DNA of 40,978 nucleotides from Acidobacteriaceae bacterium (lineage in GTDB: Bacteria > Acidobacteriota > Terriglobia > Terriglobales > Acidobacteriaceae). The DNA lies in assembly GCA_003166855.1 (NCBI GenBank), contig PMUM01000347.1:1-40978 (forward strand), written 5' to 3'. The position numbers and the translations under genes are program-made. Below the pieces are notes generated by a model that was given only the letters and a program-made list of their open reading frames with translations, did not search any database and was not told the DNA's origin. Positions 20,453-21,930 of the stretch are shown piece after piece; position 1 is the stretch's first letter; each line of letters begins with the position of its first letter.

Positions 20453-21832
20453 CTAGCGTTTGTAAATCGTGGTGTCGGGGTGATAGTTGCGCCAGTCGAA
20501 CCAGTAGTCTTTGAGGGCGGGGACGCGATCGAGGCATTTGCCCAGCGATGGTCCGGAAATGGCGCAGCCCTGGAAGTTCCAGTCGCTGGCGGTGGTGGTG
20601 TCGAGCAGGATCCAGGGTTTGGGTGTGGCTGGAGCCGCCGGCTTAGTTGCGGTCGAAGCGTCTGGCTTTGATTCGGCTGGGGCCGTCGCCGCGGGCGCGG
20701 CTTTCATTTCCGCGTGCGGATCGGACTTCGCCGCGGCCGGCGCTTCAGGCTTCGTTTGCCCATCCGGTTGAGTCGGTACCTCGCCTTCGGTTTCGCCTTT
20801 CAGGAAGAACTCGGCGTCTTTTCCGTCGATGCGGCTGATGAATACGCGGAATGATTTTCCATCGGGACCGACCGCGACCAACAGCGGAGTGCCATTTACG
20901 CGGTCGACGACCGGGGATTGTTTCACCAGCGTGTTCCAGGGATAGGCGCGGCCGGGTCCCGTCATCTCCAGTCCAACGACCACGTCGCGAGATTTGAGTT
21001 CAGTCCCCGGAAAACTGATGACCACGGGATACTTCGCTGTCTCCGGCTCCCAGTTGCTGTCGTATTCCTTCGCGTACTTCGGAACCTCGGCGAGCACCTG
21101 GCCGTCAGAAAACTCCGATTTCCACTCGCCGAACGTCAGCTCATCACTCAATACAAGCTCGAGCGAAGCGCCTTTGAGCGGTCCGTAGATGGCCTTACCT
21201 GTGATCTGCTGCCACCACGTGCCCGTTTCTTTATCGCGCATCAGGAAGTTCTGGTTGTTGATGCCCGCGAGGTAAAAATGCAGGGCTCTTCCATTCACCG
21301 TACGTGTCCACACCAGACCGGTGTGACAGAGCGTTCAATAGGTGACGGCCACCGGGACGCTGGCAACGACGTCGTTCAACACATGGTGGTATGCCATTTC
21401 GCGAATGGGGTAGGCGCGCGCGTCGGAACCGAAGCGGACGGCGAGGATCATCTCTCCCTTGTCGAGTTTGCTGGCGGACTCAGATTCGAACTGCGCGCTG
21501 GGCACGGGGTGAAACATCCACTCAAAATAGTTGAGGCGAGACATGACAGCCGAGAATCCGACCAGCACCATTACCAGGGCGATCACGATCTTGCGCCACC
21601 AATTGGCGACGCCCCACAGCACAAGCGCGAGGATCAAGCAAACCAAAGCGGTGGCCAAGGTGCCCCAGGGGGCGTGTTGACGAAGAGCCATGGCGAGCGC
21701 CAGACCCGTTGGGGTTTGGTGGGTGAAGGGACGGATGATAAACGCCGGGACGAAAAACAGTCCGATTGCCACCACAGCCGATGCGGCAAAAGCGAGCCAT
21801 AGAAAAACGCGACGATCGGAAGATGATTGCAT
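20453..21832 (-). CDS. DUF3179-domain membrane protein, predicted selenoprotein (in-frame TGA at 21337-21335 read as Sec); N-terminus may extend to 21898
   Basis: The two ORFs 21335..21898 and 20453..21313 are in the same frame and join as ...YPIREMAYHHVLNDVVASVPVAVTY[TGA]TLCHTGLVWTRTVNGRALHFYLAGINNQNFLMRDKETGTWWQQITGKAIYGPLKG, i.e. one intact DUF3179 domain with TGA at the position of the first Cys of the CxxC motif. Confidence 0.75.
21305..21328 (-). promoter_or_regulatory. Putative bacterial SECIS-like stem-loop just 3' of the in-frame TGA
   Basis: Minus strand: TGA-acgctc-TGTCACACC-GGTCT-GGTGTGGACA; 9 paired bases with a single bulged G, loop GGTCT starting 16 nt after TGA; outer ACG/CGT pairing possible. 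Confidence 0.6.
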
Positions 21833-21930
21833 AGCGAAAGACTGCTCCCCGCGGCGCACCTTAGCAGGGCAAGCGCGTTGGGCAATTGTAGCAATCACGC
21901 GCGAGGAAAATAGCGAGCGGAACGGGATTT

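What the first reader, a model, noticed from the sequence alone, without database searches (positions are those of the whole stretch)
20453..21898. Candidate undescribed selenoprotein: DUF3179 protein with TGA at the first Cys of its CxxC motif
Seen directly: two minus-strand ORFs are in one frame, separated only by TGA (21337-21335). The joined product is ...NDVVASVPVAVTY-U-TLCHTGLVWTRTVNGRALHFYLAGINNQNFLMRDKETGTWWQQITG... Established: DUF3179 proteins carry a 'VTYCPLC(N/G)...' motif; the TGA falls exactly on its first cysteine, giving UxxC, a classical Sec-for-Cys replacement. The roughly 285 codons downstream stay open with clear protein features, which argues against a decaying pseudogene. 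DUF3179 has no well-established function, so a Sec form would suggest redox or metal chemistry at this motif.
Basis: partly seen in the sequence, partly recalled or inferred. Interest (0 to 1): 0.92.

Follow-up and report, generated by a model that had tools for sequence, protein, structure and literature searches.

The report
Acidobacterial DUF3179 selenoprotein
A gene of a soil Acidobacteriota bacterium reads one internal stop codon (TGA) as the rare amino acid selenocysteine, giving a membrane-anchored, probably redox-active protein; the finding is well supported, but this protein family was already listed as containing selenoproteins in 2007, so it is a new and widespread branch of a known kind.

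Summary
The minus-strand frame 21898..20453 is broken only by TGA at 21337-21335, and Pfam names the joined protein DUF3179. The TGA encodes selenocysteine (Sec), not a stop. All 99 related loci in which the site could be read carry TGA there, always followed by a second Cys (UTLCHTG). A hairpin with an E. coli-like GGUCU loop lies 15 nt after the UGA; its third codon positions are frozen (0.21 bits of variation against 1.47 elsewhere). Seven orthologues from relatives lacking SelA and SelB carry Cys instead, nest inside the Sec clade and have lost the loop. The own genome has selA, selB and selD, and Sec-position TGAs in formate dehydrogenase and SelD. A genuine tRNA-Sec gene was found in five of five tested relatives but not in this incomplete assembly.

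The claim 'undescribed' is wrong: two reviews list DUF3179 (UxxC/T) as a selenoprotein family, citing Zhang and Gladyshev 2007. What is added: a phylum-wide Acidobacteriota branch with Sec probably ancestral, a Sec-to-Cys reversal tied to loss of the machinery, an internal duplication with the active site in copy 1 only, and a predicted Rieske-like fold. The chemistry is unknown.

The parts
20453..21832 (-). DUF3179 selenoprotein gene, ATG to TAG, 459 codons with the TGA as codon 166 (Sec); two N-terminal codons choices are possible, ATG 21832 preferred
   Evidence: alignment A2
21335..21337 (-). In-frame TGA read as selenocysteine (Sec166), at the first Cys position of the family's CxxC motif
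   Evidence: 99 of 99 readable related loci have TGA; Cys (TGC) in 7 orthologues of Sec-lacking genomes
21308..21326 (-). Bacterial SECIS hairpin: 7-bp stem UCACACC/GGUGUGG closed on loop GGUCU (21319-21315), loop 15 nt after the UGA
   Evidence: RNAalifold consensus on 82 sequences, pair counts, synonymous-site freeze, loss in Cys orthologues
21326..21328 (-). TGT, Cys169, second residue of the UxxC motif, invariant in the subfamily
21533..21808 (-). Three N-terminal membrane helices; positive charges place the catalytic domain outside the cytoplasm (inference)
   Evidence: AlphaFold2 helices 4-32, 41-73, 78-97; hydropathy
21152..21469 (-). Repeat 1 of the soluble domain, holding H149, D154, Sec166, Cys169, W207 (boundaries approximate)
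   Evidence: hhalign repeat 1 vs repeat 2, probability 99.4%, E 2e-21; conservation
20456..21001 (-). Repeat 2 of the soluble domain, active-site residues lost; carries a Cys pair (GCA...GKCL) kept in Terriglobia only and a disordered Ala/Pro-rich insertion (about residues 348-405)

Best explanation
The gene encodes a selenoprotein of the DUF3179 family. On the mRNA, a SelB-Sec-tRNA complex recognises the GGUCU hairpin just after UGA166 and inserts selenocysteine instead of terminating. The product has three membrane helices and a duplicated beta-rich domain that should face the periplasm. Only repeat 1 keeps the active site: Sec166 and Cys169 (UxxC) near His149. Most likely Sec166 is the attacking selenolate of a thiol/disulfide- or peroxide-type oxidoreductase, with Cys169 or a partner thiol resolving it. 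Shown here: the TGA and its conservation, the hairpin and its dependence on Sec, the SelA/SelB/SelD genes, the Cys replacement when the machinery is lost. Inferred: actual Sec insertion, topology, redox role (about 0.55 likely). The reaction and substrate are unknown.
For: TGA at one codon in 99/99 readable loci across Acidobacteriota. Hairpin found by RNAalifold, 99.1% of pair cells paired, C-G to G-C double change through two synonymous changes in L035 and L127. Third positions of codons +5 to +8: mean entropy 0.21 bits against 1.47 at 21 other conserved fourfold sites, minimum 0.87. Hairpin fits the published bSECIS model (3-9 nt loop, 4-16 bp stem, G in the first two loop positions, MFE below -7.5; PMC13188914): here 5 nt, 7 bp, GG, MFE -8.2 to -16.5 over 31 nt. 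Seven Cys orthologues form one clade nested in the Sec clade; their genomes lack SelA (0/7 against 6/6) and score below the SelB cut-off; loop GGUCU in 0/7 against 80/82, intact stem in 1/7 against 79/82. Own genome: selA, selB, selD; TGA at the Sec sites of FdhA (RVUHGPTV) and SelD. Among 297 genomes, 41 of 43 with a TGA-bearing DUF3179 have SelB over the cut-off against 148 of 254 others. Redox reading: Sec aligns with Cys of homologues; SecxxAla and SecxxThr forms exist, so the first residue is the essential one.
Against: No protein or 75Se data. tRNA-Sec was not found in the own assembly (93% complete, 479 contigs); the only over-threshold hits there are other tRNAs. Spacing of 15 nt from UGA to loop is one below the published 16-37. 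Rfam finds no SECIS family match at this site. Two genomes with TGA copies, G340 and G281, lack SelB in fragmented assemblies. The orthologues are related, so Fisher values overstate independence. Nothing tests the redox chemistry.
Confidence: 0.9

Rival explanations
1. The domain is a metal or iron-sulphur site rather than a thiol redox site: a Rieske-like fold in which Sec166, Cys169 and His149 bind a metal ion or a modified cluster, and Sec tunes its potential.
For: About half or more of the 50 best PDB fold matches of the soluble domain are Rieske proteins (3gce probability 1.00, 5bok 1.00, arsenite oxidase small subunit 1g8j_B 0.99, 9rk4 0.97), and Rieske subunits of bcc-type complexes lead the full-length search. 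His149 is invariant or nearly so in all subfamilies.
Against: All E-values are 0.03 or worse and target-normalised TM about 0.55. Profile comparison with Rieske sequences fails (hhalign 0.3-4.6%). The CxH and CxxH ligand motifs of Rieske proteins are absent. SecxxAla and SecxxThr relatives lose one would-be ligand.
Confidence: 0.2
2. The TGA is a real stop and the gene is two proteins or a decaying pseudogene.
For: The upstream part (membrane helices) and downstream part could in principle be separate.
Against: Pfam domain spans the TGA; dN/dS about 0.1 on both sides; TGA never replaced by TAA or TAG in 99 loci, Cys replaces it only where SelA/SelB are missing.
Confidence: 0.02
3. TGA is read as another residue, for example by an unusual suppressor tRNA of the allo-tRNA type that this phylum carries.
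For: An 8/4 tRNA with anticodon UUC sits in the own genome; allo-tRNAs are reported from Acidobacteria (PMC7609411).
Against: That tRNA reads GAA, not UGA. The TGA sits only at Cys-aligned sites, tracks SelA/SelB, and carries a bSECIS hairpin that disappears with Cys.
Confidence: 0.03

Closest known systems
DUF3179 selenoproteins (PF11376, UxxC/T), first listed from the Olavius algarvensis delta-1 symbiont (Zhang & Gladyshev 2007; tables in PMC9312934 and PMC13188914)
   Same: Same Pfam family, Sec at the same first position of the CxxC motif, Cys homologues exist.
   Different: Acidobacteriota branch with motif UTLCHTG, three N-terminal membrane helices, YHH instead of the WHE-type motif, Sec invariant across the phylum-wide branch. 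The 2007 sequences were not compared directly: that paper is not held here.
Bacterial SECIS elements of the E. coli fdhF type
   Same: In-frame hairpin just after UGA, GG at the start of the loop; the GGUCU loop resembles E. coli fdhF (the E. coli sequence is from my own knowledge).
   Different: 7-bp uninterrupted stem, no bulged U; loop begins 15 nt after UGA, at the short end of the published range.
Rieske [2Fe-2S] fold
   Same: Best fold matches of the predicted soluble domain.
   Different: No Rieske ligand motifs, no sequence similarity by profile comparison.

Membership tests
DUF3179 (PF11376) | Match to the Pfam model above its curated cut-off | tested here: met
   200.4 bits against a cut-off of 27
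DUF3179 (PF11376) | CxxC-type motif with Cys or Sec at the first position | tested here: met
   TYUTLCHTG; aligned with C in Cys subfamilies
Bacterial selenoproteins | In-frame TGA aligned with Cys in homologues | tested here: met
   99 TGA loci; 7 Cys orthologues with TGC
Bacterial selenoproteins | bSECIS hairpin downstream of UGA (loop 3-9 nt, stem 4-16 bp, G in first two loop positions, low MFE) | tested here: met
   against the model quoted in PMC13188914
Bacterial selenoproteins | UGA-to-loop spacing of 16-37 nt | tested here: inconclusive
   15 nt between UGA and the first loop base, 16 to the second G
Bacterial selenoproteins | selA, selB and selD in the genome | tested here: met
   all over curated cut-offs
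Bacterial selenoproteins | tRNA-Sec (UCA) in the genome | tested here: inconclusive
   Not detected in the own assembly; found by ARAGORN as tRNA-SeC in G014, G252, G022, G003, G012
Bacterial selenoproteins | Sec present in the protein | not testable with these tools
   needs mass spectrometry or 75Se labelling
Rieske proteins (PF00355) | CxH and CxxH cluster ligands | tested here: not met
   motifs absent from alignment A2; profile comparison 0.3-4.6%
Rieske proteins (PF00355) | Rieske fold | tested here: inconclusive
   Foldseek probabilities up to 1.00 but E 0.03 or worse

The most novel reading that the evidence does not exclude
DUF3179 is a ligand-swapped relative of the Rieske fold, duplicated and membrane-anchored, in which selenocysteine takes the place of a cluster- or metal-binding cysteine; this would be a selenolate-ligated electron-transfer site outside the cytoplasm, kept across a whole phylum.
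Probability: 0.12. Interest if true: 0.75.

Novelty: new member of a known kind. Interest (0 to 1): 0.4.

Why it matters
It shows that a DUF3179 branch widespread in soil Acidobacteriota is written with Sec, so automatic annotation will split these genes at the TGA. It also gives a clean natural experiment: in one lineage the Sec machinery, the hairpin and the Sec codon went together and Cys took over. The conserved site (His149, Sec166, Cys169) in one of two repeats makes the function of an unstudied family testable.

Tried and rejected
1) I first took the RF01852 hit at G000:C396 (49.6 bits) as tRNA-Sec because a CUUCAAA string lies in the anticodon region; rejected after relatives' true tRNA-Sec scored 65-72 bits and ARAGORN and folding gave an 8/4 tRNA with anticodon UUC. 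2) Looked for selC in 40 further stretches of the own genome, nothing; about 0.5 of 6.9 Mb, so uninformative. 3) NCBIfam gave no family above cut-off. 4) PDB by sequence and by profile: no match. 5) Rfam at the TGA: no match. 6) Single-sequence fold of 56 nt gave another structure and z = -0.89; only the alignment shows the hairpin. 7) Rieske homology by profile: negative. 8) Gene neighbourhood as a clue to function: a pilin-type cluster upstream recurs in about 20 of 55 loci, all it seems near relatives, so no functional link claimed. 9) G033 seemed to lack the TGA; it has an assembly gap exactly there. 10) The 2007 paper itself is not held.

Full report
Observation. The minus-strand frame 21898..20453 is continuous except for TGA 21337-21335. 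The likely start is ATG 21832, so TGA is codon 166 of 459. The joined product is DUF3179 at 200 bits, with the domain running across the TGA. Window organism: the nearest named relative is an Acidobacteriaceae bacterium MAG (palsa_252, 93% identical), within a group that includes Candidatus Sulfotelmatobacter.

Is the TGA conserved? In 60 relatives of the genome collection, 37 of 61 genomes (own included) matched; the 30 best matches each have exactly one TGA, at the same codon. A scan of named genomes gave 79 loci, almost all Acidobacteriota, plus one bin labelled Gemmatimonadetes. Wherever the site lies in the sequence and the motif could be read, it is TGA: 99 of 99 loci over both sets, which overlap somewhat (82 distinct sequences), always followed by Thr/Ser/Val-Leu-Cys. 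Four other loci matched a wrong frame by pattern and were resolved by profile search; the final count with the broader DUF3179 set is 113 Sec, 30 Cys, 7 not covering the site. dN/dS is low on both sides of the TGA.

Is there a SECIS element? All 82 distinct sequences line up without gaps for 60 nt after the UGA. RNAalifold predicts exactly one helix, columns 12-18 with 24-30, closing a 5-nt loop GGUCU. Counts: 99.1% of cells paired, three cells with both sides changed, against none in 500 shuffles reaching that number; most pairs never vary, so covariation is thin. Stronger is synonymous constraint: at Thr+5, Gly+6, Leu+7, Val+8 the third positions are nearly frozen (mean 0.21 bits), against a mean of 1.47 and a minimum of 0.87 at 21 other conserved fourfold sites. 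The window's own hairpin is -9.5 kcal/mol. It fits the bSECIS model as quoted in PMC13188914 except that the spacing is 15 rather than 16-37 nt. A single-sequence fold of a longer stretch did not pick it and Rfam has no family for it.

Natural control. In the window's own taxonomic family, seven genomes carry DUF3179 without a stop. All seven have Cys (TGC) at the site in an otherwise identical motif, CTLCHTG. They lack SelA (0 of 7 over the cut-off; six tested Sec genomes 6 of 6) and score below the SelB cut-off. They form one clade nested within Sec sequences (SH-aLRT 100 for the clade; quick tree), so Sec to Cys is the simpler direction. In these Cys genes the loop is GGGCU or GGACU in place of GGUCU (0 of 7 against 80 of 82) and only one keeps the stem. 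The sequences are related, so these counts are not independent events, but loop, Sec codon and machinery were lost together.

Machinery. The own genome has selA (533 bits over two pieces), selB (373 bits) and selD (339 bits). SelD and a formate dehydrogenase alpha subunit carry TGA at their known Sec positions (LTESVKAAG-U-ASKL; ENQARV-U-HGPTV), so UGA is evidently used for Sec in this organism. selC was not found in this 93%-complete, 479-contig assembly; an early hit proved to be an allo-tRNA-like gene. Five of five tested relatives with the TGA form have tRNA-SeC (UCA). Over 297 phylum genomes, 41 of 43 with a TGA-bearing copy have SelB over the cut-off, against 148 of 254 others; the tally was made by hand (Fisher). 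The two exceptions are fragmented assemblies.

What the protein is. AlphaFold2 gives a confident model (mean pLDDT 88.9): three N-terminal helices, then a beta-rich domain, with a disordered insertion at about 348-405. Charges (DRR before helix 1, WWRK between 2 and 3) suggest the domain lies outside the cytoplasm; this is inference. The domain is an internal duplication (hhalign 99.4%, E 2e-21), and only repeat 1 keeps the site. Residues conserved across DUF3179 branches include H149, D154, Leu168, W207, besides Cys/Sec166. Other branches in the phylum have UPLC, UPLA and UPLT, so the second Cys is dispensable when the first is Sec. The soluble-domain model (pLDDT 93.3) finds mainly Rieske proteins in the PDB, with probability up to 1.00 but E 0.03 or worse; sequence profiles do not support this and the Rieske ligands are absent. 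I treat it as a lead.

Known or new. DUF3179 as a selenoprotein family is in two reviews (PMC9312934, PMC13188914), both citing Zhang and Gladyshev 2007. I found no paper in the held library that treats this acidobacterial branch, but only three papers there mention DUF3179 at all. Verdict: new member of a known kind, with solid evidence for Sec and open chemistry.

Noticed in passing
own genome contig C396:8474-8562 minus strand (L001:1501-1589): An 8/4-type tRNA with long variable arm and anticodon UUC, like the allo-tRNAs reported from Acidobacteria; it scores just over the Rfam tRNA-Sec threshold and could be mistaken for selC.
   Followed up: partly
own genome contig C337 (L254, L228): A formate dehydrogenase alpha subunit with TGA at the canonical Sec position (ENQARV-U-HGPTV) and an N-terminal twin-arginine-type signal.
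   Followed up: partly
own genome contig C216 (L023): selD with TGA at its catalytic Cys/Sec position; the gene is interrupted by two undetermined bases.
   Followed up: partly
L141, L143, L148, L149, L151, L153, L155, L165: Other DUF3179 branches of Acidobacteriota with Sec: UPLC, and UPLA or UPLT where the second Cys is lost; the Sec/Cys pattern on the tree needs at least three to four changes.
   Followed up: partly
window 22518-27821 minus strand: Pilin-like genes (PilX N-terminal and three N-methylation motifs) upstream, syntenic with the DUF3179 gene in about 20 of 55 loci.
   Followed up: partly
window 20453-21001, repeat 2: A Cys pair (GCA...GKCL) conserved in Terriglobia and related loci but absent from Blastocatellia-type loci; possible disulfide.
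   Followed up: no
window 19573-20370 plus strand: DUF899 gene (E 4.6e-95) convergent with the DUF3179 gene.
   Followed up: no
L120: A Gemmatimonadetes-labelled bin carries the same Sec form among Acidobacteriota sequences: transfer or a mislabelled or contaminated bin.
   Followed up: no
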